A DNA stretch of 64,000 nt from Bacteroidales bacterium. Lineage in GTDB: Bacteria > Bacteroidota > Bacteroidia > Bacteroidales > UBA932. Under the pieces are notes generated by a model, which was not told where the DNA came from, searched no databases, and saw only the letters and a list, made by a program, of their open reading frames with translations. The position numbers and the translations under genes were made by a program. This document shows, in pieces, positions 45,963-63,036 of this stretch. The stretch covers positions 28,247 to 92,246 of the forward strand of contig JAEFAI010000006.1 of NCBI GenBank assembly GCA_016291185.1, written 5' to 3'. Numbering within the stretch: the stretch's first letter is position 1; the number at the start of each line of letters is the position of its first letter.

Positions 45963-45965
45963 AGT

Positions 45966-47087: not shown

Positions 47088-47093
47088 ACAGTT

Positions 47094-47741
47094 ATGTTTA
47101 CAGGAATCATAGAAGAAATCGGCACGGTCCGTGCCATCACGAATACGGCCTCCGGGACCGCGCTGCGCATCGCTGCCGCGCGGGTGACGGAGGGGACGCG
47201 CGTCGGCGACAGCATCGCCGTGAACGGCGTCTGCCTGACGGTCACCGCCTGCTCCGACCGGGAGTTCTCGGCAGACGTCATGCCCGAAACGGTACGCCTT
47301 ACCAGCCTCGCCGGCCTGCGCCCCGGCGCGAGGGTCAACCTGGAACGTGCCATGACGCCCGACGGCCGCCTGGGCGGGCATGTTGTCTCCGGCCACGTCG
47401 ATGCCTGCGGGCAGGTCGTGGCCGTGGTCCCGGACGGCATCGCCCGGCGCGTGAGCGTCGCGCTCGAGCCCGCGCTGCTTCGATATATTGCCCGGAAGGG
47501 CTCCGTGACCCTGGACGGCGTCAGCCTGACGGTCGTCGATGTGGATGAGCGTTCCTTCGCGGTCTCGCTCATTCCCCAGACCCGCTCGGCCACGACCCTG
47601 GGCGAACTCCGGACCGGCAGCCGCATCAACGTGGAAGTGGACTTGCTCGCGCGCTACACCGAGCGCCTGCTGGCGACGCAAACCCCGCAGAATCAGAAGA
47701 ATGGCCTCTCTCTGGAGTGGCTCGCAGAAAATGGATTTTAA
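47094..47741 (+). CDS. ribE: Riboflavin synthase alpha chain
   Basis: A 215-residue cytosolic enzyme that converts two molecules of 6,7-dimethyl-8-ribityllumazine into riboflavin. Two lumazine-binding repeats: [15 protein letters not shown] and, in the second half, [15 protein letters not shown] with [10 protein letters not shown]. Length is normal for the trimeric enzyme. It starts 6 bases after ribD and stops one base before the ribBA start. Confidence 0.95.
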
Positions 47742-47742
47742 T

Positions 47743-48963
47743 ATGTCAGACAATACTTTATCGACCATCGAAGAGGCCCTCGAAGAGCTACGCCAGGGGC
47801 ACCTCATTGTCGTCATCGACGATCCCGAGCGGGAGAACGAAGGCGACCTCATCTGCGCCGCGCGCTACGCGACGCCCGACAATGTCAATTTTATGGCCAC
47901 CCACGGCAAAGGCCTGATCTGTATGCCGATGAGTGAGGTCTATACCTCCCGGTTGGATCTCAACCCCATGGTGAGCTGCAATACCGACAATCATCACACA
48001 GCCTTTACCGTGTCCATCGATCACGTGTCCACAACCACGGGCATCTCGGCCGTGGAGCGCTCCGTAACGGCGCTGAAGTGCATCGCTCCGGACGCGACGC
48101 CTGCTGACTTCCGTCGTCCCGGGCATATGTTCCCGCTCAAGGCGCGCCGCGGCGGCGTGCTCATTCGCGCCGGCCACACGGAGGCCACGGTGGACCTGAT
48201 GCGCCTCGCGAGTCTGGAGGAGTGCGGTCTGTGCTGCGAGATCATGCGCGAGGACGGCACGATGATGCGTACGCCGGAACTGCTCGCTTTTGCGCGGGAG
48301 CATGGCCTGAAGATCGTCTCCATCGCCGACCTGATCCGCTACCGCCGCGCGCACGAGAAGACGATTGAGTGCGTCACGGTGGCCGATCTGCCGACGAAAT
48401 ACGGCCATTTCAAGGCCTACGGCTTTGAAAGCAAGATCACGGGTGAGCACCACATCGCCCTCGTCAAGGGCGACGTGACCACGCCCGAACCGGTCCTCTG
48501 CCGCGTGCACTCCGAGTGCCTGACCGGCGATGTGTTCGGCTCGCTGCGCTGCGACTGCGGCGAGCAGCTCGAAGAGGCGCTGCGCCGCATCGAGCTGGCC
48601 GGCCGCGGGATCCTGCTCTACCTCCGGCAGGAGGGGCGTGGCATCGGCCTGATCAACAAGCTCCGCGCCTACCGGCTGCAGGAGCAGGGGATGGATACGG
48701 TCGAAGCGAACCTCGCGCTCGGGTTTGCACCGGACCTGCGCGAGTACGGCACCGGTGCCGCCATCCTCTCCGATCTGGGCGCCCGGCAACTGATCCTGAT
48801 GACCAATAACCCTGAGAAGATCAGCGGCCTGGACGGCTTCGGCATCGAAATCGTCGGCCGGGAGCCGATCGAAATCAAGAGCAATGCGGTCAACGACCGT
48901 TACCTGCGCACCAAGTGCAGCAAAATGGGGCACCTGCTCCACCTCGACGATATGAACAAATAA
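47743..48963 (+). CDS. ribBA: Bifunctional DHBP synthase / GTP cyclohydrolase II
   Basis: A 406-residue cytosolic enzyme for the two committed steps of riboflavin synthesis. The N-terminal DHBP synthase half (about 1-205) has [12 protein letters not shown] and [12 protein letters not shown]. The C-terminal cyclohydrolase half has the zinc cysteines in [20 protein letters not shown] and the [12 protein letters not shown] loop. The start is ATG 47743 ([11 protein letters not shown]), though an in-frame ATG at 47731 overlapping ribE is possible. Confidence 0.95.
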
Positions 48964-49443: not shown

Positions 49444-50355
49444 TTAACGCGTTTTTCTCGGCACGAAATTGACCAGGCCGACGCCGGTGAATACCAGGAC
49501 GCAGGCCAGGATCTTGAGGAGCGTGAGATGGTCCAGTCCCATCGCCAGGGCGATCACCATGGCGATGACGGGCTGCACATAGGTGTACATGCAGACGACG
49601 ACTGGCCGCAGGCGTTTCTGAGCGACCGGGATCAGGAAATAGGAGATGAAGGTGGCACCGACCACGACGTAGATGACCTGCCACAGTACGTCCCCTGGCA
49701 CGGCCGCGAGGTCGGAGGCCCCGAATGCGCTGAAGGAGAAGGGGAGTGCCATCAGCGAGGAGAAGAGGAACATCCACTTCATGAAAGTCACGACCGAGTA
49801 CCGCTGGATCAGCGGCTTGAACACGCCCACGTAGGTCGCGAAGCTCAACGTGTTGATAAGCATGCCGAGGATACCCCAGATAGAGGTGGAATCGGCTCCG
49901 GAGCGAATGGAGACGCAGTTGAAGATGAGGATGAACACGCCGATGAGGCTCAGGGCAATGCCTGCCACGCCGCTCCAGGTAATCCGCTCGTGAATCACGA
50001 TGGTGGAGATGACAAGCGTCATGATGGGGCTCAGCGTGCTCAGGATGGAGGCGTCGATGGCCGTGGCCTTCGTGATGGCGAAGAGGAACGATAGCTGCGT
50101 CATGAAGAGCCCGAGGAAAGACGCGAGGGCAACTTTCCAAAGGTCTCCTTTTGCTATCTGCTCCTTCGGAGCCGTGAAGAGCGACCAGATCCAGAACAGT
50201 GCCGTCGCTCCGAAAGAGCGCAGACAGAACAGCGCCATGGGCGTGATGTTCCCGTCGATGGCTATGTTCTTGCAGCAGATGATATTAAATCCGAAGATGG
50301 CGTATGCTGTAAAGCACGCCAGGTTCCCGATCAGTGTACTATTCTGCGTCTTCAT
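49444..50355 (-). CDS. EamA/DMT-family transporter
   Basis: A 303-residue inner-membrane protein with about ten hydrophobic helices in two homologous EamA halves (CFTAYAIFGFNIICC, AIDASILSTLSPIMTLVISTIVI; second half VFKPLIQRYSVVTFMKWMF, QPVIAMVIALAMGLDHLTLLKILA). Members export amino acids or other small metabolites. It is convergent with ribH with a 1-base gap. Its neighbour riboflavin genes raise a weak possibility of flavin transport, but no motif shows it. Confidence 0.85.
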   Translation of the reverse strand: MKTQNSTLIGNLACFTAYAIFGFNIICCKNIAIDGNITPMALFCLRSFGATALFWIWSLFTAPKEQIAKGDLWKVALASFLGLFMTQLSFLFAITKATAIDASILSTLSPIMTLVISTIVIHERITWSGVAGIALSLIGVFILIFNCVSIRSGADSTSIWGILGMLINTLSFATYVGVFKPLIQRYSVVTFMKWMFLFSSLMALPFSFSAFGASDLAAVPGDVLWQVIYVVVGATFISYFLIPVAQKRLRPVVVCMYTYVQPVIAMVIALAMGLDHLTLLKILACVLVFTGVGLVNFVPRKTR

Positions 50356-50378
50356 ACTTGTACTTCAATCTCTCTACA

Positions 50379-50386
50379 CAAATTTA
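50379..50386 (-). promoter_or_regulatory. -7 box (TAAATTTG on the minus strand) for the EamA gene
   Basis: CAAATTTA on the plus strand reads TAAATTTG on the minus strand, 23 bases before the ATG at 50355. Confidence 0.5.
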
Positions 50387-50482
50387 GGCACTATTCCTTT
50401 TTTCGCAAAACCCGAAACGTAAAATACTAAAGAAATAGATAAGAATTGTTATAACATAATTGCGCATCACGTAATAACTTTA

Positions 50483-50490
50483 TATCTTTG
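50483..50490 (+). promoter_or_regulatory. -7 box (TATCTTTG) for the toxin-antitoxin pair
   Basis: TATCTTTG ends 15 bases before the antitoxin ATG. A palindrome GTTATAAC (50448-50455) within an imperfect AATTGTTATAACATAATT sits about 30 bases upstream and could be the antitoxin-toxin operator. Confidence 0.6.
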
Positions 50491-50505
50491 CAAAAAAGAA
50501 AGGAA

Positions 50506-50802
50506 ATGAAGACCACGACACGAATCAAGCGAATCGGGAACAGCCGGGGGATCGTTATCCCGTCCGAAATCCTTCGGGAGCTTTCTCTCTCGGAGCGGGA
50601 TAGTCTGGATATCTGCACGGAGGAGGGGAAGATTATCCTGTCAGCATCTTCCGCTGAAGAGACTTTTTCCGGTCCGTTTACGGGTCCATTTGCGGAGTTG
50701 AGTGGCGATCCCAATCTTTGGGGGGGATCTATGTCTGCCGTGGAATATGAAGACGAACTCCGCCGTGGCCGTCACAGCGTTAAGGACATGGAGACATGGT
50801 GA
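50506..50802 (+). CDS. AbrB/MazE-type antitoxin (VapB)
   Basis: A 98-residue DNA-binding antitoxin. The N-terminal swapped-hairpin AbrB domain is clear: TTTRIKRIGNSRGIVIPSEIL and a following LSERDSLDI strand. The C-terminal tail (DPNLWGGSMSAVEYEDELRRGR) would wrap the toxin. The VapC gene starts inside the last codons (7-base overlap). Start at 50506 is preferred over a TTG at 50488. Confidence 0.85.
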   Translation: MKTTTRIKRIGNSRGIVIPSEILRELSLSERDSLDICTEEGKIILSASSAEETFSGPFTGPFAELSGDPNLWGGSMSAVEYEDELRRGRHSVKDMETW

Positions 50803-51209
50803 GAAGACCGAGGCGGTATCTACTGGATACCAATGTCTTAATTGACATGTTTAAGGGTAACCGTCGCGTACAGGAGAATATCTTTTGCGCGGAGTTTCAC
50901 AATTGTTTTGTGTCGGAGATCACCTTGGCGGAACTCTATGTCGGAGCCTTTAAAGGAGGTCGGCCCAAGCAACTTGTGGAGATTGGTTTTGTCCTGAAGC
51001 ATTTTCACATCCTTCCCGTGTCCGGGGCCATAGAACAGTACGCGAAACTGCGTGTCCATCTGGAACGAAAAGGGATCCCGGTTGACGACTTTGATTTGTT
51101 GGTTGCGGCCACGGCACAAACAGAGAAACTGGTCTTAGTCACGCACAACCTGAAGCACTTTGAACGGATCGACGACTTGCAGCTGGAAGACTGGGATCGT
51201 GTAGGTTAA
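50796..51209 (+). CDS. vapC: PIN-domain toxin VapC
   Basis: A 137-residue ribonuclease toxin. PIN acidic residues appear in YLLDTNVLIDMF, EITLAELYVGAF, and VDDFDLLVAATAQTEKLVLVTHNLKHFERI. It is coupled to the antitoxin by overlapping stop and start. VapC toxins typically cut tRNA or the 23S sarcin-ricin loop; the target here is unknown. It lies at the left edge of the apparent insertion. Confidence 0.9.
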   Translation: MVRRPRRYLLDTNVLIDMFKGNRRVQENIFCAEFHNCFVSEITLAELYVGAFKGGRPKQLVEIGFVLKHFHILPVSGAIEQYAKLRVHLERKGIPVDDFDLLVAATAQTEKLVLVTHNLKHFERIDDLQLEDWDRVG

Positions 51210-51235
51210 ATCCGACTGTTAGGGCATAAAAAAAC

Positions 51236-51259
51236 CAGGGAACTATCCCTGTTTTTTTA
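51236..51259. terminator. Terminator after vapC
   Basis: CAGGGA-ACTA-TCCCTG followed by T7, with an A-run before it, can work in both directions. It ends the vapBC transcript. Confidence 0.8.
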
Positions 51260-51416
51260 TAGCTGATTGATAAAGGATTATTTATCTAGTTGGCCTTCTA
51301 ATATTCCTCCTCGTTCCAAAAAACGATGAAATGCGAAGGGGGTATGCTCCTGAGACACTTAAAAAGCTGATTTATCTGTGTGACAGCGGGATGGAATTCA
51401 AGGGCTTGAAGATTAA

Positions 51417-51659
51417 TGGTACGCCCTGGGTGCCGTCTGGGCCAATATTTCCTGGGGCAGTTACTGGGCATGGGACCCCAAGGAGACCTGGGCGCTCATT
51501 ACGATGCTGGTATACGCTTTCACCTTGCACGGCGGCGCGCTGAAACCTTTCCGGAACCCCGGCTTCTTCCATGGCTATACAATTTTCGCCTTCGTCTGCG
51601 TCCTTGTCACCTACTTTGGCGTGAACCTCCTGCTGGGAGGCATGCACTCCTATATGTAG
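51417..51659 (+). pseudogene. C-terminal fragment of a CcsA/CcmF-type cytochrome c assembly protein
   Basis: The frame from 51417 reads WYALGAVWANISWGSYWAWD and continues with PKETWALITMLVYAFTLHGG and VLVTYFGVNLLLGGMHSYM, ending TAG at 51657. WGSYWAWDPKETWALI is the heme-handling signature of CcsA/ResC-type proteins. The frame is closed just upstream (TAA at 51414) and the hundreds of residues that should come before are missing, so this is a remnant. The preceding 51260-51413 contains no gene I recognise. Together with vapBC this marks the left border of an insertion or rearrangement. Confidence 0.85.
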
Positions 51660-51696
51660 CCGCCGGCCGCAGCCTCCAACCGGGCTCCGGACGGGA

Positions 51697-53205
51697 CTAA
51701 CGTGGGATGGTCTTCTTACGGAACACAGGCACTTCTTCTACAGGCAGGGCAGCCAGACATTCCTCGATGCCCTTGCCGCCAAGCGGGTCTATTCCCTGTT
51801 CAATCTGCCGGCATAGTTCCATGCTTATCCGGGCTGTCAGGCAAGCGTCGCCTTTTATCTCCCTTAGCACGAAAGTGCCGTCGGCATGCATTTCCAACGG
51901 CTCGCCGGCATAGCAGGGCACGCGGCAATACCGGCAATAGTCGTGCTGGCCGCAGGCGGGAAACGCCTGCTTCTGATCGGCCTGACGCATCTGCAGGCGC
52001 CGTGGACTCTTGATGGCTTCCTCCAGCGAGGTATGGCGCACATTGCCAAAGGTGATGGAGATATTGTCGCACCCGCCGACTATTCCACTGGGTGACACGG
52101 TGATTGTACTATTGGCAGCACAGGGGAACCCACGCCTGCGGCCAAACTCGTAGCCGCAGGCTTTTCCATCAGCTGGCACACGGCTTTCCCCAAGCGGATC
52201 TATCAAGAGGATACGCAGGGCTTCAGGGCGTGTCTGCAGGTGTTCAATCAAAGATACATCGCCGTCGGCACCAGGTATCAGTACACAAGAAATTTCATTC
52301 TCCGCACCCAGCCGACGGGCTATTTCGCGCACCCCGTAATACGTCCGGGTGTTCAGACGGAACACGGGTGTCTTGAGGTTCAGGGGCACAGGCCATTCTG
52401 CCAGCTCCCTCAGCACCTTCATCGACTGCTCCCACGAGCCGCGACGGCGTGTGATTCGATCGTGCAGCTCGGCATCGGTGCTATAGATGGAAACGCTTAA
52501 CTGTCGGAGCCCCATACGGGCGATGCGTCTTATCTTTTCGCCATTGTTGAGCGCGAGGGCGTTGGTGAACAGGTTCACAGCCAGATTGCGCTCGTGCATA
52601 TACTCAAGGATGTCCCAGCAGTGGGGATAGCTGAACGGATCGCCGCCCGTGACGGTCACCTCTGGTATTCCTAATGCTACGGCTTCATCGATGAGACGCT
52701 TGTAATCGGCCAGTTTGAGCATGTCAGGGCGCAGGCGGTGCTCCTCGTGCAGGTCGCTGCGGGCAGCGCCTTCGTTAAAGCAGTGCAGGCAACGTTCGCT
52801 ACAGGCATAGGTAAGTTCAAATTTCAGGGAAACCCGAAATTCCTCAGGTAAGGAATCCTTATAGTCGCCCACAGGCTCATAACCCTTTGCGACAATACAA
52901 GGTGGATTATCCTTTCGGTATTGCTGCCACTCCTCGTCAGTCCATACATGGTCGTGAATCAGTCCTATAGGCATCAGCGACGTTTGACAGAACGCGATGA
53001 CCTGTTCCTCTGTGGCGCCTGTCACTTTAGCGATATGCCCTGTGTTAACAGGACATTCTCTCTTCCCTTCCAGCATCTCATGGACCAGCAGGGCCGATAC
53101 CCCCTCAAATGTATAGCACGTGCCGTGAGCCGTATTGTACATCACTGCTCTCTGAGCCTGGCGGTTAAAGGCACCACAGGTGTATAGTGGCCGGATAAAG
53201 GTCAT
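51697..53205 (-). CDS. Radical SAM/SPASM enzyme with N-terminal PqqD-like domain
   Basis: A 502-residue cytosolic enzyme. Residues about 15-90 look like a PqqD-like RiPP-recognition winged helix (AVMYNTAHGTCYTFEGVSALL, then a helix and QTSLMPIGLI). The radical SAM core has CSERCLHC (C135, C139, C142) and the GGDPFSYP SAM loop. The C-terminus has seven clustered cysteines (C350, C362, C379, C418, C424, C427, C431) of a SPASM/twitch domain for auxiliary FeS clusters. This layout is that of peptide-modifying maturases. It overlaps the MATE gene by 4 bases (ATGA). Last gene of the cluster. Confidence 0.88.
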   Translation of the reverse strand: MTFIRPLYTCGAFNRQAQRAVMYNTAHGTCYTFEGVSALLVHEMLEGKRECPVNTGHIAKVTGATEEQVIAFCQTSLMPIGLIHDHVWTDEEWQQYRKDNPPCIVAKGYEPVGDYKDSLPEEFRVSLKFELTYACSERCLHCFNEGAARSDLHEEHRLRPDMLKLADYKRLIDEAVALGIPEVTVTGGDPFSYPHCWDILEYMHERNLAVNLFTNALALNNGEKIRRIARMGLRQLSVSIYSTDAELHDRITRRRGSWEQSMKVLRELAEWPVPLNLKTPVFRLNTRTYYGVREIARRLGAENEISCVLIPGADGDVSLIEHLQTRPEALRILLIDPLGESRVPADGKACGYEFGRRRGFPCAANSTITVSPSGIVGGCDNISITFGNVRHTSLEEAIKSPRRLQMRQADQKQAFPACGQHDYCRYCRVPCYAGEPLEMHADGTFVLREIKGDACLTARISMELCRQIEQGIDPLGGKGIEECLAALPVEEVPVFRKKTIPR

Positions 53206-54962
53206 TCCACGTTTCGGCTATAATTCAGATAGATGCAGTTGATACCGTTCATGTACTTGTGGTTGATATTCTTGCACAAGCGCGACAGTACGGCCCGTCG
53301 CAGGTTGTTCTCATCGAGATCCGTCAATTCCTCATCAGTAATTTTATAAATAGGATTACGGATAGGGCCTTTGCTCTTGACCACCACCGTGAACTCCTTT
53401 TCCTTGTCGATGATACGCACATCGAAGGTCTCGTTATCCTTAGAGGCTTCATGCGTCTCCACAACCTCATAGAGCAGTTCTTCCAGTGCCATATCCACAG
53501 CCAGCCCGTCGGGCAGTTCGCACGACTGCACAAAGGGTTGCACCTGGGCCAGGAACGCTTCGACTCCCTCGTTGGTATAAGGTACGGAGACCGTGAAGCC
53601 AGGGTTCGACGGTAATGTGTTCTCCAGTGTAGGCCATGCATAAAGCGGATTCTTGCGATGAACCACATACGCCATAGCCACCATCACCAGCAGCAGGAGC
53701 CAGGCAGTGACGGGCAGGATGTACCAGATAAGTTCGGGGGTATAAAGAGCCATAATAGCAATAATGCCGATGGTTCCCGCGTTGGTTACAATCTCTATCC
53801 ACCGGCAGAGCTTCTGATGTCCCTGCACGAAATAAAGCACGCTCAATGTCTCGGAAAGGGCATTGGGCAGGAAGGCGAGGCTCATCAGGCGGAACGGAAT
53901 ATAGCACTGTGCTATCAGGTTTTCGTCAGCTCCATAGATTCTTGCAATCAAGGAGGGGAAGAGGAATATCAGCAGGCTAACTGCCGTCATCACTAGTATT
54001 AACATGCGGAAGGTCCGTCTCGTGAGTAAGCGGAAACTGTCGTAGTCTTCTTCACCCAGCAAGATGCCGCCGATATTTGTGATGGCGGTATTCGAGCCTG
54101 ACAATGCCAACATACAGATGCCGTTGATCTGAAAATAGATGGTAAAGAAATACATGGCGTCGGCACCGAGTTTTCCGATAACCAGCGAGTTCATGGTGAA
54201 GGCTATGGCCGGAGATAACAAGGAAGATATCAGCATGGGGAGGCCGATGGAAAAGCATTCACGATACAGCTTGATGCTGCAGATCTTCTCCGGGCGCCTG
54301 AGACGGAATACTTTGCTGTTCTTGCGCATATAGCCCACCAATGAGGTGAAGGCGAGCAGGTTGCTCAGTCCCGATGCAAGCGATGCACCGGCCATGCCCA
54401 TGTCGAACACACCGCAGAACAGCAGGTCGAACCCGACATTGAGTATCTGTGAGATGACGATGCGTCGGGTGATGAGGCGCGGATTGCCGTTGGTGATGAC
54501 ATAGGAGATGGGCACACCGCAGACGGCTGCCACGAAGATAGCGAACATGTCGGCATGGATATAGGGCTTCAGCATGGGCAGCAACCGTTCATCGGTTGTT
54601 ATGAGGCCTGCCAACACGTTAAGGAAAGGCAATACGAGAGCGACTACTAACAGTGTGGAGAAGATGACATAGTACAGGTGGTTGTTGAACACCCGGTTCA
54701 CCTTGTCGTAGTTCTGGGCACCGATGCCTCTTGTGCTCAGGAAGCCGGCACCTGAACTCATCATGCCGATGATGATAAACATGCAACTTGAAAAGGGCTG
54801 CCAGATACGGACAACCGACAGAGCATCGGGCGACACCAGATGAGACACTACGATGGAGTCTATGAAACCACCCAATTGTCTCATCAGAGCCGACATGATG
54901 GTCGCCAGGAAGAACGAACCGAACATGTTCTTCAAGACATATTCATTCTGCTGCATCATCAT
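53202..54962 (-). CDS. MATE-family transporter fused to a degenerate HATPase-like domain
   Basis: A 586-residue inner-membrane protein. Residues about 1-440 are a MATE transporter with 12 helices (LMRQLGGFIDSIVVSHLVS, GNPRLITRRIVISQILNVGFD). Residues about 455-586 resemble an anti-sigma/serine-kinase HATPase domain (DMALEELLYEVVE, EFTVVVKSKGPIRNPI, LSRLCKNINHKYMNGIN), but the N-box Asn and the Asp of the DxGxG box are missing, so it may not bind ATP. It overlaps both neighbours (20 and 4 bases). As the only transporter within the cluster it may export the product. Confidence 0.85.
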   Translation of the reverse strand: MMMQQNEYVLKNMFGSFFLATIMSALMRQLGGFIDSIVVSHLVSPDALSVVRIWQPFSSCMFIIIGMMSSGAGFLSTRGIGAQNYDKVNRVFNNHLYYVIFSTLLVVALVLPFLNVLAGLITTDERLLPMLKPYIHADMFAIFVAAVCGVPISYVITNGNPRLITRRIVISQILNVGFDLLFCGVFDMGMAGASLASGLSNLLAFTSLVGYMRKNSKVFRLRRPEKICSIKLYRECFSIGLPMLISSLLSPAIAFTMNSLVIGKLGADAMYFFTIYFQINGICMLALSGSNTAITNIGGILLGEEDYDSFRLLTRRTFRMLILVMTAVSLLIFLFPSLIARIYGADENLIAQCYIPFRLMSLAFLPNALSETLSVLYFVQGHQKLCRWIEIVTNAGTIGIIAIMALYTPELIWYILPVTAWLLLLVMVAMAYVVHRKNPLYAWPTLENTLPSNPGFTVSVPYTNEGVEAFLAQVQPFVQSCELPDGLAVDMALEELLYEVVETHEASKDNETFDVRIIDKEKEFTVVVKSKGPIRNPIYKITDEELTDLDENNLRRAVLSRLCKNINHKYMNGINCIYLNYSRNVE

Positions 54963-56331
54963 CTTTCAATCTATAAACCGTCACGCCCATCATCGTGAAT
55001 TTATCTTTCATATAAGTGTAGGCATCCATGTTTGAGAGTCCTAATCCATCTTCGCTGGCATGATAGAAGTGCAGTCTGCCGTCTATCCATTTGGCTATCA
55101 GCAGGTGCTTGACCTCCACGCCTCTTGACCAGCTATGCTGATCACACACCACCGCCAGGATGTCGCCATCGTGAATCACGCCCAGCTCCGAATCCTGCGG
55201 CATGTCCAGCAGCTCACGGGGGATATAGGTAAAGCGCAAGCGCTGCTGCTGGCGAAGGGCGATGGCCTTGTAGTTTTCTTCGTCATCCATCTGAGGGCGG
55301 AACAGATGCTTGTTCCGGGTCATATAGTTTGGCTGCAGGTCCATCATCCCCGTAAATGGAAAGGAAGGCTCATCGGGACCGACACATTCCACAAAGCCCT
55401 CTTTGATGGCCGACTGCATGATCCAGGTGAAATAATGGTTGCGGGTGGCAAACGAGATGACGCCATCCTGATAGTGCATCCTCCGATAGTAGTCCTTCAG
55501 GTCATCCAGTGTGGTTCGCCCGTCTCTGTAACATAACGCCAGTGACAGCACATCCTCTATCACGGTGGTACAGTCCACATGGCTCAGGCTCACAATCAAG
55601 TGTTCTTCATCCAGGGGTTGTGTCAGGCTGGTAGGGATGCCGCCCTCCATCAGTTGGCGGAAGAAGTATTCGGTCTGCGGCATCGACCTGTCCACGTTTT
55701 CCATCGCACGCTGCAGAATCTGCTCGTTTTGCGCGTCAAACTGCTGCTCATTGCGTCGCAGGCGGCGGAGCAGCCTTTTCCGAAAGAACCATTTTGCCAA
55801 GTTGCTCAAGAACGTCCTCACGCAGAACACCAGCCACAGCGAGCGCAGCGCCGCCAGCTGTTCGCGCCAGAAGTAGGGGTTGGCTTTCACCTTCTCATAG
55901 TCGCTGATGTCAATGCCCCAGGCATCATAACCCAGCCACCCCGCAATGCGCACCGCACGGGCGATATGAAAGCTGCTGGTCAGGATGTAGAATCGGGTTT
56001 GCTGGAAATACAGTTCCATGTCCCATAACGAGCGAAACGTGTTATACCCACAGGTGTCCAGCACAAAGCGCTCTTCAGGAATATGGTATTCCTCTACCAG
56101 CGTGCGGTAGAGGACGGAAGTGTCGGAACGGCAACCGGAGATGTAGAACAGCCAGTCGGGATAGGCATCGGCCAGGATACTCACCAGCCTCACCCGCAGC
56201 TGCAGGATGGGCGACAGCGAGTTGTCCGGACGAAGTTTGGCGCCCAACACCAAGCATACCTTCACGCCATCAGGTACCTTCCTTCCCTTCAGTCCTTGCA
56301 GCCTGCCGTTATGTAGCTTAACACATCGCAT
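54943..56331 (-). CDS. DUF218-DUF1460 fusion protein
   Basis: A 462-residue protein. The N-terminal third is a DUF218 (SanA/YdcF/ElyC) domain: VCLVLGAKLRPDNSLSPILQ, FYISGCRSD, the YHM-RA equivalent TSSFHIARAVRIAGWLG. The C-terminal half is a DUF1460 domain of the NlpC/P60-like amidase class with LSHVDCTTVIEDVLSLA (candidate nucleophile C254; a later His near 299). A basic segment (KWFFRKRLLRRLRRNE) joins them. The start at 56331 overlaps the upstream gene by 14 bases. DUF1460 members cleave peptide or amide bonds, so it may process a peptide; a cell-wall role is the alternative. Confidence 0.78.
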   Translation of the reverse strand: MRCVKLHNGRLQGLKGRKVPDGVKVCLVLGAKLRPDNSLSPILQLRVRLVSILADAYPDWLFYISGCRSDTSVLYRTLVEEYHIPEERFVLDTCGYNTFRSLWDMELYFQQTRFYILTSSFHIARAVRIAGWLGYDAWGIDISDYEKVKANPYFWREQLAALRSLWLVFCVRTFLSNLAKWFFRKRLLRRLRRNEQQFDAQNEQILQRAMENVDRSMPQTEYFFRQLMEGGIPTSLTQPLDEEHLIVSLSHVDCTTVIEDVLSLALCYRDGRTTLDDLKDYYRRMHYQDGVISFATRNHYFTWIMQSAIKEGFVECVGPDEPSFPFTGMMDLQPNYMTRNKHLFRPQMDDEENYKAIALRQQQRLRFTYIPRELLDMPQDSELGVIHDGDILAVVCDQHSWSRGVEVKHLLIAKWIDGRLHFYHASEDGLGLSNMDAYTYMKDKFTMMGVTVYRLKDDDAAE

Positions 56332-56899
56332 GGGCCGATTCGTGCATTTTTTCTTCTGTTTGAAAAAGAAGAACGATCTGCTCTCTGACACTGGTGGCAA
56401 ACGCATCGCTGTTTTCCTGGATGTAGGCCTTCAGTTCTGGGATGTCCTTACACCGCAGATGGTGTATCACCATGAAATGCAGTCCACGCCCTTCGTAGTT
56501 ATGACCGGCACCGTCGAAAAAAGTTACCTTGCCGTCCATCACATCCTGATTGGCGCGTGCCCACAGGTGGAATATCCTGTCAATCGCATGAGACATGTCG
56601 TTGTCGTAATGGCAATAGCAAACCAGTTCGTCAGGATGCTCTTCCAGGTATTGGGTAATCACCGCCACAACCATGCGCCCCATGTCCTTGTCAGCCGCAC
56701 CGCCACGCTTCCCGGCGGCAAGCCTGAGTATAAAGTAGAGTACCCGATGGCCACCCATCTGGGCCACCTCAATAAAATGAAGCACATAAAGACGACCCGC
56801 GGCATTGTAAAACTCCACCGCTGAATCGCCTCTTTTCCTTAGCACCAGCTTGGATATGGTGTTAATCTTCGCTATTCCTTCTTCAGAAACAGTATTCAA
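56318..56899 (-). CDS. Hypothetical protein (DUF6169-like pattern)
   Basis: A 193-residue cytosolic protein with no signal peptide. Its pattern (a beta-strand pair at VEFYNAAGRLYVLHFIE, then AVITQYLEEHPDELVCYCHYDND, RIFHLWARAN, and HFMVIHHLRCKDIPELKAYI) resembles the small Bacteroidota DUF6169 family. No function is known. No ATG occurs near the N-terminus; the best start is a TTG at 56899, after an attenuator-like hairpin. It is the second gene in the cluster after the short peptide frame. Confidence 0.6.
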   Translation of the reverse strand: MNTVSEEGIAKINTISKLVLRKRGDSAVEFYNAAGRLYVLHFIEVAQMGGHRVLYFILRLAAGKRGGAADKDMGRMVVAVITQYLEEHPDELVCYCHYDNDMSHAIDRIFHLWARANQDVMDGKVTFFDGAGHNYEGRGLHFMVIHHLRCKDIPELKAYIQENSDAFATSVREQIVLLFQTEEKMHESAHAMC

Positions 56900-56911
56900 C
56901 TTTGTTATTAG

Positions 56912-56938
56912 GAGATAGGACTAATAAAGACCTATCTC
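56912..56938 (-). terminator. Attenuator-like hairpin between peptide gene and processing genes
   Basis: GAGATAGG and CCTATCTC (8 bp, 11-base loop) lie 10 bases after the peptide stop codon. There is no clear T-run, so it could stabilise or partly stop the peptide transcript. Such hairpins are common between precursor and modification genes in RiPP operons. Confidence 0.6.
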
Positions 56939-56948
56939 GTATTAACTC

Positions 56949-57095
56949 TTAATTAGACGTCGTGCAAAACGAAGTCCTATCCCTGTCATCTATGGTTTTA
57001 TATACATAATCGTCAAGGGTCAGAGCCTGAGCGGTAATGACACTTTCAGGAGATTTCCTAATTACAAACAGATCGTTTTCATTGTTAGTAGTCAT
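56949..57095 (-). CDS. Candidate precursor peptide, 48 residues
   Basis: A short frame from ATG 57095 to TAA 56949. The sequence starts MTTNNENDLFVIRKSPESV, goes on through ITAQALTLDDYVYKTIDD, and ends RDRTSFCTTSN. The layout is that of a RiPP precursor: an acidic leader with a hydrophobic patch (DLFVIRK), then a C-terminal core of Thr, Ser, Phe and a single Cys (C44). It has its own promoter (57145-57152), is followed by a hairpin, and heads a cluster with a PqqD-like-domain radical SAM enzyme. No homologue is known to me. It might instead be an unrelated small protein. Confidence 0.6.
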   Translation of the reverse strand: MTTNNENDLFVIRKSPESVITAQALTLDDYVYKTIDDRDRTSFCTTSN

Positions 57096-57144
57096 AGTGA
57101 TCAAATTTAATAATTTAAAAAATCTTTTTCTTTGCGGTTGCTGG

Positions 57145-57152
57145 CAAAAGTA
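57145..57152 (-). promoter_or_regulatory. -7 box (TACTTTTG on the minus strand) for the peptide cluster
   Basis: CAAAAGTA on the plus strand reads TACTTTTG on the minus strand, 49 bases before the peptide ATG. A TTTG about 20 bases upstream fits the -33 element. The leader is A/T-rich. Confidence 0.6.
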
Positions 57153-57191
57153 TAAAAATTATATTTATCTTCCAAATTTTCAACAAGAAAC

Positions 57192-58508
57192 TTACAGCGT
57201 CAGCTTCCCGCCGCGGTAGAACTCCACCAGGGCGGTCTGGTAGAGGCATTCGTAGGTGGCCTGGACAGAGTCGGACTGGGCCTTGACGAGGCGGGCCAGG
57301 GATTCGTTGAATTCCGTGATGGTGGCCTTGCCGTTCTCGTACTTGGCTTTGGTGAGGGTGAAGGCGTCTTCGGCCGCGGCTGCGGCATCCAGGGAGGCCT
57401 CGTAATTGGCCTGGGAGGCCACGGCCGCATTCCACGCCTGCTGAATCTCCTTATATAGAGTATGCTCTGCCCGGAGCAGCTGAAGCTCTTGCGTACGGTA
57501 CTGAAGCTTGGCGGTACGCACCTGGTTGCGCACGGAGAAGCGGGTGAAGATAGGGATGTTCAGGGACAGGCCCACGTACTCGCTGAAGTTGGAATTGAGC
57601 TGGCTCCAGAAGTTCTGCGTGGCAAAGCTGGTGTAGTAGTTGGTGCCCACGCCCCCGCGCAGGGAAAGGCTGGGATAATAGCCAGCCTTGGCAATCTGGA
57701 TTTGCTTCTGGGCTCCTTGCAGACGCAGTTTTTCGGCCTGGATGGCAGGGCGCACGCCCAGAGCTTCGGCATAAATCTCGTCCGGATGGGGAATCAGGGC
57801 CGATGCAAAGGCCACCTTGGGCCGCACCACCGAAAAGCCCTCCCAATAAGGGAACTCCAGCAGCTGCGACAAATCCAGAAGCGATGCACGGATGTTGTTC
57901 TCCGCCTGGATGAGGGTGACGCGACTCTGGGCCAGGGTGGCCTTCTGCTGGGACACTTCGGCGGTCGATGCACTACCGGTGTCGAAGAGGCCCTGGAGCC
58001 GGACCACCTGCAGGGAGTCGATGCTCATCTGCCGGGCGGCCACGTCGCGGATTTCATAATTGTAGAGAATCTGGACATAGGCCTTGGCCACCTGGACGCT
58101 GATGTCGTCGCGGGCTTTGGCCAGATCGGCCGTGGCGGCTTCCAGGTTCAGCCGGGCCAGTTGCATGCGGCGGGGCGTAGCCAGACCGTCAAACAGCGTC
58201 ATATTGGCGCCTATATTGAAACTGGTGGAAGCGGTGTTTCCTTTCTCATAAGTGTTGTTGCCACCGATACCGCGGCCGAAGCTGATGGTCTCGTCCACGG
58301 AACCGTTCACCGCAGGCAGCCAGGCCATGCGGGCGGTGTTGTCCTCCACCTTGCGAGTTTCCAGGGTAATGGCACTTCCAGCCACGGTGAGGTTGTTGTC
58401 CATGGCCCAGTCGATGCATTCCTGCAGGCTCCAGGGATGGGAGAGGTCCGGCAGGGAATCGGTGGGGGCCTGTGCAAAAAGCGCCAGGGCAATCAGGAGC
58501 GTTTTCAT
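57192..58508 (-). CDS. TolC-family outer-membrane efflux protein
   Basis: A 438-residue outer-membrane channel. It has a signal peptide (MKTLLIALALFAQAP) and two TolC-type helical-hairpin repeats with paired strands (SLQECIDWAMDNNLTV, ISFGRGIGGNN, IRDVAARQMSIDSLQVVRLQ, VGLSLNIPIFTRFSVRNQVRTAK). It forms the outer duct of a tripartite exporter with the adaptor 3 bases upstream. Last gene of the MacAB-TolC-type operon; no terminator is seen before the peptide promoter, so read-through is possible. Confidence 0.92.
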   Translation of the reverse strand: MKTLLIALALFAQAPTDSLPDLSHPWSLQECIDWAMDNNLTVAGSAITLETRKVEDNTARMAWLPAVNGSVDETISFGRGIGGNNTYEKGNTASTSFNIGANMTLFDGLATPRRMQLARLNLEAATADLAKARDDISVQVAKAYVQILYNYEIRDVAARQMSIDSLQVVRLQGLFDTGSASTAEVSQQKATLAQSRVTLIQAENNIRASLLDLSQLLEFPYWEGFSVVRPKVAFASALIPHPDEIYAEALGVRPAIQAEKLRLQGAQKQIQIAKAGYYPSLSLRGGVGTNYYTSFATQNFWSQLNSNFSEYVGLSLNIPIFTRFSVRNQVRTAKLQYRTQELQLLRAEHTLYKEIQQAWNAAVASQANYEASLDAAAAAEDAFTLTKAKYENGKATITEFNESLARLVKAQSDSVQATYECLYQTALVEFYRGGKLTL

Positions 58509-58511
58509 GGC

Positions 58512-59603
58512 TTACTTGCTGTTAATGATTTGCGGGCCGCGCACCTTGTCGGTGGCCTGGAGTCCCTCCTTGATCTCTATGGTAACGCCGTCGGAAAGGC
58601 CGGCGACCACAGGGCGTTTCTCATAGCCGGCGGTGCCCATCACGTACACGAAGGTTTGCTCCCCCTCGAACTGGATGGCGCTTTCCGGCAGGGTAATCAC
58701 GTCGTGCACTTCCTGCAGCACAATCTCGGCATTGGCGCTGTAGCCGCTGCGGATGACCACATCCGAGGGGACCTTCACGGAAGCCTTGATTTCGAACAGG
58801 TTGGTGCCGCCGGACTCGGTGGCCTTGGGGGAGATGTACTCCAGCGCGGCGTCGAAGGAAAGGTCCTGAAGGGCACCCACGGTAATGCGTACGGGCAGGC
58901 CCACGTGCAGGCGGCCCACCTCCGTCTCGTCAATGTTGCCGTCGAAGATGAGGTCGTCCATGTTGGCCACGGTGGCGATGGTGGTACCGTCGTTGAAGGT
59001 GTTGGACATGGTGACGCTGTTACCCACTTTCACCGGGATGTCCAGGATGAGACCCGATATGGTGGAGCGCACCAGGGTGGTGCTCCCGCTCTTGTTGGAG
59101 GAGGACACGCCGTCGCGCACGATCTCCAGGGTCTCCTGGGCGATGGAACGTTCTTCCTTGGCCTGCTCCAGCGCCTGGCTCACCTTTTCGAATTCCTCGG
59201 CGCTCACCAGGTTCTTGTCGAACAGCTCCTTTTCACGCTTGTAGTTGGTCTGGTCCTGGGTGAGGTTCACTTCGGCCAGGCGCAGGCGGCTCTGGGCCGA
59301 TGACAGCTGGCTCATGTCCGGAATCACCTTGAGCTTGGCGATGACCTCGTTCTGCTGCACGGTCTCACCGGCCTTTTTGTACAGCTCGGCCACGATTCCG
59401 TTGATCTGCGGCTTCACGTTCACTTCGTCCCGGGGCTGGATTTTGCCCGTGACCACGGTGCTTTTGGAAATATCGCCCTTTTCCGGCATCACTTCCTGAT
59501 ACTGGATTTCCTTGGGCTTGGACCGCTGGAACAGGTAGGCAAAGGTGCCGATGAAAAGGGCGGCAACCAGAACGACCATCAAAATTTTACCAAACTTTTT
59601 CAT
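58512..59603 (-). CDS. MacA/HlyD-type periplasmic adaptor protein
   Basis: A 363-residue membrane-fusion protein. It has an N-terminal membrane helix (ILMVVLVAALFIGTFAYLF), a lipoyl domain (GKIQPRDEVNVKPQINGIVAELYKKAGETV), a helical hairpin (SSAQSRLRLAEVNLTQDQTN, FEKVSQALEQAKEERSIAQ), and beta-barrel and membrane-proximal domains. It bridges the inner-membrane ABC permeases and TolC. Short spacing to both neighbours. Confidence 0.92.
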   Translation of the reverse strand: MKKFGKILMVVLVAALFIGTFAYLFQRSKPKEIQYQEVMPEKGDISKSTVVTGKIQPRDEVNVKPQINGIVAELYKKAGETVQQNEVIAKLKVIPDMSQLSSAQSRLRLAEVNLTQDQTNYKREKELFDKNLVSAEEFEKVSQALEQAKEERSIAQETLEIVRDGVSSSNKSGSTTLVRSTISGLILDIPVKVGNSVTMSNTFNDGTTIATVANMDDLIFDGNIDETEVGRLHVGLPVRITVGALQDLSFDAALEYISPKATESGGTNLFEIKASVKVPSDVVIRSGYSANAEIVLQEVHDVITLPESAIQFEGEQTFVYVMGTAGYEKRPVVAGLSDGVTIEIKEGLQATDKVRGPQIINSK

Positions 59604-59618
59604 ATCTGTAACTGTTTT

Positions 59619-60875
59619 TTATTCGTCTCTCATAGCGTCTACGGGCTTGATCTGCATAGCGCGGGAAGCGGGCATCAGGCCGGCCACCACACCCAGAACC
59701 GTGAGGAGGGATGCTGCCAGCACCGCCGTGCCGAAGGGCACCTGGAAGGCGGCTTTCAGGATGCCGTCCTGCGTCATGGCCGCCTCTACGCCGGCCAGGA
59801 TAAGCACGCTGAACACGATGCCCGCCATGCCCGCCACCAGCGTGAGCACAATGCTCTCGGAAATGATCTGACCCAGGATCTGGTGGGGTGTGGCGCCAAT
59901 CGCGCGGCGGATGCCAATCTCCGTGGTGCGTTCCTTCACGCTCACCATCATAATGTTGGATACGCCTATCACGCCGGCCAGCAGGGTTCCCATGCCGATG
60001 AGCCACACCAGGAAGTTGATGCCCTTGAACAGGTTGTCTATGATGCCGAAGATGAGCTGGGTGTTCAGCAGGAACAGGGCCTGTTCGTCGGTGGGGTCGA
60101 AGTAATGCGCCCGGGCCAGGATTTCCCGTACGCGGGGCGTGAGGTCGCTCATCGTATACCCCGGCTTGGCCGTGAAGCACAGCATCTGGATGTTGTTGCC
60201 CAGGTTATAGGCCCTGACGGCCTGGGTGAGAGGAATGGTAACGGCGTCGGAGCTGCTGCCATTGATGTTGATGTTGCCTGCCTCCCGCCAGTCCACGCCG
60301 ATGACGCTGTAATAGGTGCCGCCGATGCGGATGCGCTGCCCGCAGGGGTCTCCGCCCTCCGGGAACAGGTTGGCGTACACTTTTTTACCCAGCACGCAGA
60401 CTTTGCGCTCCTGGGCCAGGTCGGCCTCGTTGAGGTATCGGCCATACATCATCTTGGGCGTCTCGATGTTCACGTAATCGGCCCGGGCGCCCTTTACCAC
60501 GGCGTCTGTGTAGGTGTTTTCGTTCCGCGCGACGCTCTTGCCCCAGAGACTTACGGTAGGGGTGACCGTCTCCAGTTCCGGCATCAGGTTCTTGAGGCGG
60601 TCCACATCGGCATAGTTCATCTCCCAGGTGCGCCCTTTCTTGAAGCCTTTGAAGGGCTTGGACGTGTTGTTGGAGAAGGCGATGCAGGTGTTCTGCGCGA
60701 ATCCTTCGAAGGTGTTGTTCATTAACTCCTTAAGCCCCTGGCTGCCGCCGATGAGGAGCATCAGCATGAAGATGCCCCAGAACACGCCGAAGCCGGTGAG
60801 GAAGCTGCGGCTTCTGTTCCGCAGGATGCTGTCCAGGATTTCCCGGAAAGTATCGGTGTCAAACCACTTTTTCAT
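59619..60875 (-). CDS. MacB-type ABC transporter permease (second copy)
   Basis: A 418-residue inner-membrane permease with an N-terminal helix, a periplasmic MacB_PCD domain (about 45-245) and a C-terminal FtsX domain with three helices (GVSNIMMVSVKERTTEIGIRRAIGA, IVLTLVAGMAGIVFSVLIL, PASRAMQIKPVDAMRDE). MacB-type exporters use mechanotransmission to push substrates from the periplasm through TolC. It overlaps the other permease by 4 bases. Two permeases without a fused ATPase fits a heterodimeric exporter. Confidence 0.9.
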   Translation of the reverse strand: MKKWFDTDTFREILDSILRNRSRSFLTGFGVFWGIFMLMLLIGGSQGLKELMNNTFEGFAQNTCIAFSNNTSKPFKGFKKGRTWEMNYADVDRLKNLMPELETVTPTVSLWGKSVARNENTYTDAVVKGARADYVNIETPKMMYGRYLNEADLAQERKVCVLGKKVYANLFPEGGDPCGQRIRIGGTYYSVIGVDWREAGNININGSSSDAVTIPLTQAVRAYNLGNNIQMLCFTAKPGYTMSDLTPRVREILARAHYFDPTDEQALFLLNTQLIFGIIDNLFKGINFLVWLIGMGTLLAGVIGVSNIMMVSVKERTTEIGIRRAIGATPHQILGQIISESIVLTLVAGMAGIVFSVLILAGVEAAMTQDGILKAAFQVPFGTAVLAASLLTVLGVVAGLMPASRAMQIKPVDAMRDE

Positions 60876-62137
60876 TCGGCTCTCAGGGCTTCAATGGGTT
60901 TTACTTTTGCGGCTTTCCAGGCGGGGACTGCCCCGGCCAGGGTGCCGGCGATAATCAGGAGCAGGGTGGCTTCCAGGGCCACGTCCAGCCCCACGGTGGG
61001 GTTCACCAGCATACGGATTTCCTCGAAGCCGATGTCCACGGCTTTCTGTCCCACGGTCTTGTCCATAATCTCGCAGGCAATCATTCCCAGAAACATCCCC
61101 GCGTAGCCGAAGACGGCGGTGATACAGATGCTCTCGGAGATGATGAGCTTGAGGATGGCACCGGGACGGGCGCCGATGGCCTTGCGGATGCCAAACTCGT
61201 GGGTGCGCTCCTTCACGGTGATGAGCATGATGTTGGAAACGCCCACGATGCCGCTCACCAGGGTGAGAAGGCCCAGGATCCACAGGGCGATGCGAAGGAT
61301 ACCCTGCGCCTTGTTCATCTGCAGGTTTTGCGTGTATCCGTTCATTACCCAGATGCCCTGGTTGTCGTCCGGGGCTATGTCGTGCATGCGCTTGAGGGCG
61401 CCGGTATACTCTTCCTCGAAGGCCTGGTGCTCCTCCAGGGTCTTGGGACCGTTTACGTTGAAGGTGATGCTCTCAATCTTGTCGGAACTGTCGTAGATAC
61501 CTTTATAAGTGGTATAGGGAATGTTCACGCGGCGGCGGAAATCCCCTTCGTCGGTGTGGTAGATGCCCACTACCTGGTAGGAGATGCTTCCTGCTGCAAT
61601 CCATCGGCCCACCACTTCTTCCGGCTTTCCGGGCATCAGCTCCTTGGCCTGGGACAGGGCGATGACCATCACTTTCCTCTTCTCCCGGATGTCCGTGGGA
61701 TTGATGAAACGGCCGGCGGCCATCTTGATTTTGTTCTGTTCCTGGTATTCGGGCACCACGCCGTTGATCCAGCCGCCTACGGTACGGCCTTCCAGGGAAA
61801 GGACGGAACTGGTGGAGGAAGTGGTGGTGGTTACGTTCTCGATAACGCCTTCCCAGTCGGTTCCCTTGGTGTAATTCACGTCTTTCTGGTCCAACTGGAT
61901 TCGACGGCGCTCCTTGTAACCTTTGTATGGTTTGGAGGTGCGCCACCCTTCCACGGAGATATCCAGGGTAACGTAGTCCTGGATGTTTCCCATAAATGAA
62001 TTCATCAGTCCGTTGCCGGCTCCCAGCAAAGCGATGAGCAGGAAAATGCCCCAGCTTACCGCAAAGCCCGTGAGGGCCGTGCGCAGCTTGTTGTTCCGGA
62101 GGGAACTGGCTATTTCGTGGATAATCTCTATTCGCAT
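60872..62137 (-). CDS. MacB-type ABC transporter permease (first copy)
   Basis: A 421-residue inner-membrane permease, paralogue of the next gene. N-terminal helix (FAVSWGIFLLIALLGAGNGL), MacB_PCD periplasmic domain, and C-terminal FtsX domain (GVSNIMLITVKERTHEFGIRKAIGA, PAWKAAKVKPIEALRAE). It overlaps the ATPase gene by 1 base and the next permease by 4 bases. Confidence 0.9.
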   Translation of the reverse strand: MRIEIIHEIASSLRNNKLRTALTGFAVSWGIFLLIALLGAGNGLMNSFMGNIQDYVTLDISVEGWRTSKPYKGYKERRRIQLDQKDVNYTKGTDWEGVIENVTTTTSSTSSVLSLEGRTVGGWINGVVPEYQEQNKIKMAAGRFINPTDIREKRKVMVIALSQAKELMPGKPEEVVGRWIAAGSISYQVVGIYHTDEGDFRRRVNIPYTTYKGIYDSSDKIESITFNVNGPKTLEEHQAFEEEYTGALKRMHDIAPDDNQGIWVMNGYTQNLQMNKAQGILRIALWILGLLTLVSGIVGVSNIMLITVKERTHEFGIRKAIGARPGAILKLIISESICITAVFGYAGMFLGMIACEIMDKTVGQKAVDIGFEEIRMLVNPTVGLDVALEATLLLIIAGTLAGAVPAWKAAKVKPIEALRAE

Positions 62138-62853
62138 TACTTCATGAGGGGACCGCCCCAGGCGTCGTGGTGGATGTTTTCTTCAATCTGGCCGATGACG
62201 CCGTCCTTGATGTGGATGATCTTGTCGGTCTCATTGGCCACGCCGCTTTCGTGCGTGACCACGATGATGGTGATACCTTCTTCTTGATTCAGTTTCTTCA
62301 GGAGCTGCATCACTTCTACGCTGGTCTTGGAGTCCAGGGCGCCGGTGGGTTCATCGGCCAGGATAATCTGGGGATGGGTGATGAGGGCGCGGGCTATGGC
62401 CACGCGCTGCTTCTGTCCGCCGGACATCTCGTTGGGGAAGTGGGATGCCCAAGGGGTGAGGCCCAGTTTTTCCAGATATTCCATGGCCAGTTCGTGGCGA
62501 CGGCGGCGGGACACCCCTTGATAATATAAGGGGAGTTCCACATTCTCCACGGCCGTCTTGAAGCTGATGAGGTTGAAACTCTGGAAAACGAAGCCGATCA
62601 TACGGTTGCGGTAGTCTGCACTTTGCCGCTCGCTCAGGTCTTTGATGAGCTTTCCGTCAAGGGTATAGGTTCCGGTATCATAGTTATCGAGAATTCCGAG
62701 AATGTTTAGTAGTGTACTCTTACCGGAACCCGACGCGCCCATAATGGACACGAATTCACCTCTTTCGATGCTGAGATTGATACCCTTGAGGACGTGCAAC
62801 GGCTGACCGTTGTTGTAAGTTTTGTTAAGTTCTTTTAATTCTATTAGCGCCAT
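62137..62853 (-). CDS. MacB/LolD-type ABC transporter ATP-binding protein
   Basis: A 238-residue cytosolic ATPase. Walker [11 protein letters not shown]-loop FVFQSFNLI, signature [15 protein letters not shown], Walker [12 protein letters not shown], and switch His in VVTHESG. It powers the two permeases that follow. First gene of a five-gene operon (ATPase, two permeases, adaptor, TolC). Confidence 0.93.
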
Positions 62854-62884
62854 TATTTCGCTGTATTAGTATCCTATTACACTG

Positions 62885-62892
62885 CAAAGATA
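62885..62892 (-). promoter_or_regulatory. -7 box (TATCTTTG on the minus strand) for the exporter operon
   Basis: CAAAGATA on the plus strand reads TATCTTTG on the minus strand, 31 bases before the ATPase ATG. Confidence 0.65.
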
Positions 62893-63036
62893 GGACTGTT
62901 TTTTTAATTTGCAAAACTTTTTTCGTTTATTAGACGAAGAAAGTTGGGGATTGGTTGGGATTTTGTACAAAAAACCGGCCAGTTTGAATTTTTTTCATTA
63001 CTTTAGCGCTCCGATAGGAATAATCTCTATTAGTAT

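What the first reader, a model, noticed from the sequence alone, without database searches (positions are those of the whole stretch)
51697..57152. Candidate undescribed RiPP system: short peptide, RRE-radical SAM/SPASM maturase, DUF218-DUF1460 protein and MATE-HATPase exporter
Seen: five same-strand minus genes with overlaps of 14, 20 and 4 bases among the four large ones, headed by a promoter and a 48-codon frame. The final enzyme has a PqqD-like N-terminal domain, CxxxCxxC (C135, C139, C142) and a seven-Cys SPASM region. Known: RRE-fused radical SAM/SPASM proteins modify precursor peptides in many RiPP pathways (thioether, C-C or Tyr/Lys crosslinks). Inference: the 48-residue product is the substrate, the DUF1460 Cys-hydrolase-like protein is a candidate leader peptidase or wall-targeting factor, and the MATE fusion exports the product. 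I do not recognise this exact combination as a described system.
Basis: partly seen in the sequence, partly recalled or inferred. Interest (0 to 1): 0.88.

Follow-up and report, generated by a model that had tools for sequence, protein, structure and literature searches.

The report
Modified-peptide gene cluster of Bacteroidales
A five-gene cassette in gut Bacteroidales encodes a tiny peptide with a fairly constant front and a changing, cysteine-bearing tail, next to the radical enzyme that most likely modifies it, so it looks like an uncharacterised family of bacterial peptide natural products.

Summary
The finding holds up. The five minus-strand genes are real, and the 48-codon frame is a gene family: 43 distinct homologues share a leader (typically NPFxIRKSPxxIITAQALTLDDYV) with divergent tails; 41 of 43 tails carry Cys, no leader does. 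The peptide occurs in 18 of 20 genomes with a close maturase; in the other two the contig ends at that spot. The maturase model has an N-terminal PqqD/RRE-like arrangement and its best structural matches are the RiPP maturases SkfB and SuiB. A related enzyme group carries a different conserved peptide (C-x7-C-G-I-x-Y-R) directly downstream; it was also found beside 6 of 7 enzymes not used to define it, the seventh being truncated. This is therefore very probably a RiPP maturase family with at least two precursor types. New details: the 193-residue protein is a divergent DUF6169 protein with a possible GNAT-like fold; the DUF1460 protein looks soluble with an intact Cys/His pair; the "HATPase" part is degenerate. 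Chemistry, leader removal, export and biological role are inferred, not shown. I file it as a new variant of a known kind.

The parts
57145..57176 (-). promoter of the operon (TTTG-N20-TAnnTTTG)
   Evidence: exact pattern match, 7 in window against 0.06 expected; consensus recalled
56949..57095 (-). gene A: 48-aa precursor peptide
   Evidence: 18 protein homologues; profile hits in 18 of 20 close-clade genomes
56997..57095 (-). leader part of A (residues 1-33, to DDYVYK)
   Evidence: conserved part of alignments A1 and A3; the exact cleavage site is not known
56952..56996 (-). core part of A (TIDDRDRTSFCTTSN)
   Evidence: variable, Cys-bearing part
56318..56899 (-). gene B: 193-aa divergent DUF6169 protein, possible GNAT-like fold
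   Evidence: 92 homologues; DUF6169 weakly in 6 of 22; model and fold matches
54943..56331 (-). gene C: DUF218 + DUF1460/AmiA-like Cys hydrolase (longest frame from 56406)
   Evidence: Pfam, PDB 2p1g and 4h4j, Cys279/His434 invariant in 12 rows (numbering of the 487-aa frame)
53202..54962 (-). gene D: MATE transporter with degenerate GHKL-like C-terminal domain
   Evidence: Pfam, PDB MATE structures, motif inspection
51697..53205 (-). gene E: RRE-radical SAM/SPASM maturase
   Evidence: Pfam, alignment, model and fold matches
52909..53181 (-). PqqD/RRE-like domain of E and following helix (residues 9-99)
   Evidence: strands 9-14, 19-24, 29-34 and helices 36-46, 55-62, 66-77 in the model
52780..52803 (-). 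CxxxCxxC motif of E (C135, C139, C142)
51841..52122 (-). seven-Cys SPASM region of E (residues 362-455)
   Evidence: Pfam SPASM 29.1 bits against 21.5

Best explanation
This is a RiPP biosynthetic operon. The RRE of enzyme E binds the conserved leader of the 48-residue precursor A, and the radical SAM/SPASM core modifies the variable tail, most likely through its near-universal Cys (a thioether-type crosslink; about 0.4 for that chemistry). B (DUF6169/GNAT-like) is a second tailoring enzyme or a precursor-binding partner. C, a soluble DUF1460 Cys hydrolase fused to DUF218, is the best candidate for leader removal (about 0.35). D, a MATE pump with a degenerate GHKL domain, exports the product (about 0.6). 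Shown by sequence: the precursor family, the leader/tail split, the linkage and the enzyme architecture. Inferred: binding, chemistry, cleavage, export and role. The confidence below is for 'E modifies A as a RiPP'.
For: 43 distinct precursors with conserved leader and divergent tails, Cys in 41 tails and 0 leaders. Peptide A in 18 of 20 close-clade genomes; 28 of 29 peptide matches have B, C, D or E on the same piece of about 1.6-3.2 kb, and A-B-C order holds in 13 of the 18 genomes. Loci with two or three precursors that differ in the tail (L010, L011, L012, L015). RRE-like N-terminus and best fold matches SkfB and SuiB with aligned ranges that begin at residues 3-23. In 299 genomes of one family 8 have the maturase, and exactly these 8 have peptide A (1) or the CGIxYR peptide (7) (all 8 had supplied rows to the profiles). 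Independent test: in 399 genomes of another family, 6 of 7 further maturases have a CGIxYR peptide just 3'.
Against: No product or modification is known. E meets no NCBIfam maturase model and A matches no Pfam or NCBIfam family. L014's peptide keeps only MSKNPFAIRKSP of the leader. P0130 lacks a tail Cys. L089 is an orphan precursor with none of the other genes found nearby, in ne3005 E is on another contig than A-B-C-D, L016 has no C hit and L014 no B. 5 of 29 peptide matches run over a stop codon. L022 and L107 have an enzyme but no clear peptide. The roles of B, C and D rest on fold and family alone.
Confidence: 0.86

Rival explanations
1. The system is a sactipeptide or ranthipeptide cluster of the usual kind: E links the tail Cys to an alpha, beta or gamma carbon of another residue. 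This is a special case of the best explanation, with known chemistry.
For: Cys in nearly every tail. Closest folds include SkfB, and the sactipeptide-titled 5why/5wgg. Asp-rich tails recall PapB, which makes Cys/Asp thioethers (PMC9413430, abstract seen).
Against: No AlbA, SkfB or StsB model near its cut-off (54, 40 and 56 bits against 850, 300 and 625). The window core has no Cys-X3-Asp: its Asp residues precede the Cys. P0130 lacks Cys.
Confidence: 0.35
2. E matures a protein partner (for example C), as in sulfatase or quinohemoprotein maturation, and the short peptide is a guide, regulator or bystander.
Against: The group with the CGIxYR peptide has an enzyme and a short Cys peptide side by side without B and, by Pfam, without a DUF1460 or MATE gene among the 7 downstream neighbours that were scanned. 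The variable tails behind a conserved leader do not suit a guide or cofactor.
Confidence: 0.06
3. A is a precursor of a redox cofactor or metal-binding small molecule (PQQ- or mycofactocin-like).
For: The same enzyme architecture; mycofactocin and PqqE models are among the better NCBIfam matches (75.5 and 65 bits).
Against: Both are far below cut-off (265 and 381). Tails vary from species to species, whereas cofactor precursors are constant at the modified residues (recalled). No dehydrogenase gene was seen beside the cassette.
Confidence: 0.05

Closest known systems
SkfB (sporulation killing factor maturase; PDB 6efn)
   Different: 18% identity; SkfB family model scores 40 bits against a cut-off of 300; other precursor and neighbours
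SuiB (streptide maturase; PDB 5v1t, 5v1q, 5v1s)
   Different: 12-15% identity; streptide is a Lys-Trp crosslink (recalled) and the window tail has neither Lys nor Trp
Tryglysin cluster wgkABCD
   Same: short precursor, radical SAM enzyme, RRE and a transporter; WgkD is a MATE protein by NCBIfam NF052396, and D matches that model weakly (31.6 bits against 510); operon from passages of PMC8092268
   Different: in wgk the RRE is a separate protein (WgkC); no DUF6169, DUF218 or DUF1460 gene in the passages seen; another precursor
PapB ranthipeptides
   Same: radical SAM maturase acting on Cys and Asp/Glu (PMC9413430, abstract)
   Different: PapB uses Cys-X3-Asp; in the window tail Asp precedes Cys
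Bacteroidales RiPP clusters of PMC10352776
   Same: same order; radical SAM genes are the commonest RiPP markers there (passages seen)
   Different: passages seen describe LanC, YcaO, pseudo-rSAM and C39-peptidase transporters; DUF1460 and DUF218 do not occur in the text; not all passages were shown

Membership tests
RiPP gene cluster (general) | precursor gene with conserved leader and variable core | tested here: met
RiPP gene cluster (general) | tailoring enzyme gene linked to the precursor in relatives | tested here: met
RiPP gene cluster (general) | RRE that binds the leader | tested here: inconclusive
   fold predicted; binding not testable here
RiPP gene cluster (general) | post-translational modification and leader removal | not testable with these tools
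   needs mass spectrometry
Sactipeptide | match to a curated sactipeptide maturase model (AlbA, SkfB, StsB) | tested here: not met
   54, 40, 56 bits against 850, 300, 625
Sactipeptide | Cys to C-alpha thioether | not testable with these tools
   tail Cys present
Ranthipeptide (PapB type) | Cys-X3-Asp/Glu motif in the core | tested here: not met
   window tail TIDDRDRTSFCTTSN has no Asp or Glu after the Cys
Tryglysin/streptide RaS-RiPP | Trp/Lys in the modified core | tested here: not met
   window tail has no Trp or Lys; requirement from recall and PMC8092268 passages (WGK)
Mycofactocin / PQQ | curated maturase model | tested here: not met
   75.5 against 265 and 65 against 381 bits
DUF1460 / AmiA-like Cys hydrolase (gene C) | family match and catalytic Cys/His pair | tested here: met
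   75.1 bits against 27; Cys279 and His434 in 12 of 12 rows, aligned with 2p1g; that these are the catalytic residues is recalled
GHKL ATPase (C-terminus of D) | N-box Asn and glycine-rich G1/G2 motifs | tested here: not met
   Asn at the N-box position in 1 of 17 rows (L014), no DxGxG or GxGL seen (motifs recalled, judged by eye)
GNAT acyltransferase (gene B) | GNAT fold and acyl-CoA site | tested here: inconclusive
DUF6169 (gene B) | Pfam PF19666 match | tested here: inconclusive
   6 of 22 homologues, best E 0.0011; the window protein itself has no match at E up to 10

The most novel reading that the evidence does not exclude
A new RiPP class: an RRE-radical SAM/SPASM enzyme makes an undescribed Cys-centred bond in an Asp/Arg-rich tail, a DUF6169 protein with a GNAT-like fold acylates the peptide, a cytosolic DUF1460 hydrolase (a family otherwise tied to the cell wall, recalled) removes the leader, and a MATE pump with a dead GHKL domain exports the product. 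The CGIxYR system would be a second new class made by the same enzyme lineage.
Probability: 0.3. Interest if true: 0.75.

Novelty: new variant of a known kind. Interest (0 to 1): 0.6.

Why it matters
It gives an entry point to an uncharacterised peptide family of rumen and gut Bacteroidota, in genomes that include apparently cultured strains by their record titles (Prevotella sp. ne3005, MA2016, tc2-28). It supplies a leader motif and two precursor families that can be searched for, and first functional hypotheses for DUF6169 and for a soluble DUF1460 protein. The maturase can be assayed directly by co-expression with its peptide.

Tried and rejected
MacAB-TolC as part of the system: the ABC/permease/HlyD/TolC operon (57192-62853) has its own promoter match at 62915-62885. 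Matches to its HlyD, TolC and permeases over 150 bits were printed only for the two nearest relatives, L001 and L002 (an ABC ATPase alone in L012 and L023). Several loci have short flanks, so this is an incomplete test, but I left it out.

Attenuator hairpin between A and B: strong in the window (-16.7 kcal/mol, 0 of 200 shuffles as stable), but the 7 relatives folded (shorter gaps) give 0 to -2.7 kcal/mol.

Plasmid origin: no megablast match of 50000-63000 in 72,556 plasmid records. Own genome: none held.

Named families: all 25 NCBIfam matches shown for E (of 52) are far below cut-off; A has none in Pfam or NCBIfam, three CGIxYR peptides none in NCBIfam.

Literature (held PMC library only): radical SAM + Prevotella + RiPP + rumen, 1 paper; radical SAM/MATE/RiPP/Bacteroidetes/RRE/precursor, 56 hold five terms, 25 listed; DUF6169, 0; DUF1460 + radical SAM, 0; rumen RiPP, 26 hold four terms, 20 listed; radical SAM/MATE/RiPP/sactipeptide/GNAT, 70 hold four, 15 listed; radical SAM + MATE transporter + precursor peptide, 1, on methanobactins; Prevotella + ranthipeptide, 10. 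No listing or passage seen describes this cassette. Passages seen: PMC10352776, PMC13289728, PMC8241843, PMC8092268, PMC12710340; abstract and outline: PMC9413430. Supplements and subscription papers were not seen, so the cluster may already stand somewhere as an anonymous radical SAM hit.

Selections: A2 holds the window plus 20 of 167 homologues (120 were listed), one with an internal deletion (P0063). P0214, P0221 and P0228 (short or frame-shifted) were dropped from A4 to make A5. L026 and L027 (unrelated radical SAM proteins) were set aside. The tree used only maturase stretches over 400 aa from L001-L025 and L084-L088, so L017-L019 fell out. In one search the leader/tail cut failed for 4 of 43 peptides, which does not change the Cys count.

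Full report
OBSERVATION. The five minus-strand genes are as described: peptide A 57095-56949 (48 aa), B 56899-56318 (193 aa, TTG), C (DUF218 + DUF1460/AmiA-like) from about 56331 to 54943, D (MATE) 54962-53202, E (radical SAM/SPASM) 53205-51697. Upstream of A is an exact Bacteroidetes promoter pattern at 57176-57145 (consensus recalled). The nearest maturases are those of L001 and L002, uncultured Bacteroidales (85% identity), so the window is from that group; no genome is held for it.

THE PEPTIDE IS A GENE FAMILY. The 48 residues alone found 18 homologues of 45-50 aa. With those from genome loci there are 43 distinct peptides. In the close set A1 the leader is well kept (21 invariant columns); in the broader set A3 (19 rows) F10, I12, P16 are invariant and N8, K14, I20, Q23, A24, D28, D29 at least 90%, with L014 keeping only MSKNPFAIRKSP. 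Tails range from TIDDRDRTSFCTTSN (window) to GEFGTDFHCRSGVLDGTSKK, GSWESGCVKSGVCPSSAKK, AGNPGRACPSSDRD, GVIDHKDDAGGGGCGTVGR and MVCNGDVPRCDNSIARNSH. 41 of 43 tails hold Cys, 0 of 43 leaders do; of the two without, one is cut by a contig end (L029/L050) and P0130 truly lacks it. Leader codons show purifying selection (pN/pS 0.34, 20 sequences; comparable tails 0.60 from 9 pairs). L010 and L011 have three precursors and L012 and L015 two; in L010 and L011 the leaders are near-identical and the tails differ.

LINKAGE. A scan of genome contigs with the maturase alignment gave 27 loci: 20 close (58% or more), 5 distant Bacteroidales (29-33%), 2 set aside. Peptide A is in 18 of the 20 close genomes and 0 of the 5 distant. 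The two misses (G004, G005) have the contig end inside C and B. Of 29 peptide matches, 5 run over a stop codon. 28 of 29 have B, C, D or E on the fetched piece, and A-B-C order holds in 13 of 18 genomes, in one of them (G007, L044) with C in two pieces. The exception (L053/L089) is an orphan precursor; beside it lies a 65-aa frame that resembles a GHKL tail by eye. In Prevotella sp. ne3005 A-B-C-D lie on one contig and E on another. Other orders: A-B-E-D in L016, C-E-D in L014 and L015.

A SECOND PRECURSOR TYPE AND AN INDEPENDENT TEST. In the tree the peptide-A enzymes are one side of a branch (18 rows, 100/100) within a 38-row family set apart from other radical SAM proteins (100/100); the CGIxYR enzymes lie in that family outside the peptide-A group (2 changes; one origin in 56% of bootstrap trees). 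Several long branches meet, so deeper order is unsure. Directly 3' of these enzymes is another short frame, for example MKKNLKISKVSTTVTMANCPKMSEGACGIMYRSA in L025 (alignment A6 of 9 rows, invariant C19, E24, C27, G28, I29, Y31, R32). L022 has no clear member. In 299 genomes of one family 8 have the maturase at E 1e-80; 7 of these have the CGIxYR peptide and the eighth has peptide A, while none of the other 291 has either at the thresholds used. All 8 had supplied rows to the profiles, so only the absence elsewhere is new there. In 399 genomes of another family 9 have the maturase: 2 have peptide A; the other 7 played no part in A6, and 6 of them carry a CGIxYR peptide just 3' of the gene (E 9e-17 to 1e-7 among the short frames of the 7 loci). 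The seventh (L107) has a maturase frame that stops at about profile position 383 and no peptide. The 399 genomes were not searched whole with A6. I regard this as the strongest evidence that the lineage is a peptide maturase family.

MECHANISM. Leader binding by the RRE, radical modification of the tail at or near Cys, possible acylation, leader removal by C and export by D is the most economical reading; only architecture and linkage are shown. PapB-type Cys-X3-Asp does not fit the window tail; a sactipeptide-type or other thioether, or a bond without Cys, stays possible.

NOVELTY. By the tested features it is a RiPP system and it meets none of the named families tested. No text seen describes it, with the limits stated. 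I file it as a new variant of a known kind.

Noticed in passing
L021 11589-11693, L023, L024, L025, L084-L088, L101-L106 (just 3' of the maturase): Second conserved short peptide family, C-x7-C-G-I-x-Y-R, beside the more distant maturases; some of these enzymes sit in frames of 735-762 codons with a long N-terminal extension.
   Followed up: partly
window 50488-51209 (+): MazE-type antitoxin and PIN-domain gene pair, a likely toxin-antitoxin module, just downstream of the operon on the other strand.
   Followed up: no
window 57192-62915 (-): ABC, two MacB/FtsX permeases, HlyD and OEP genes with their own promoter match directly upstream of the peptide operon.
   Followed up: partly
window 56912-56938 (-): Stable hairpin between A and B (-16.7 kcal/mol for 56898-56960, z -3.67), not seen in 7 relatives.
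   Followed up: partly
L089 6348-6719: Orphan precursor of Prevotella sp. ne3005 next to a 65-aa frame that looks like a GHKL-domain remnant, perhaps a decayed cassette.
   Followed up: partly
L010 and L011: Cassettes with a second MATE gene, a B fragment and three precursors.
   Followed up: no
window 45852-47852 (-): 666-aa frame without a Pfam match at E 0.01; may not be a gene.
   Followed up: no
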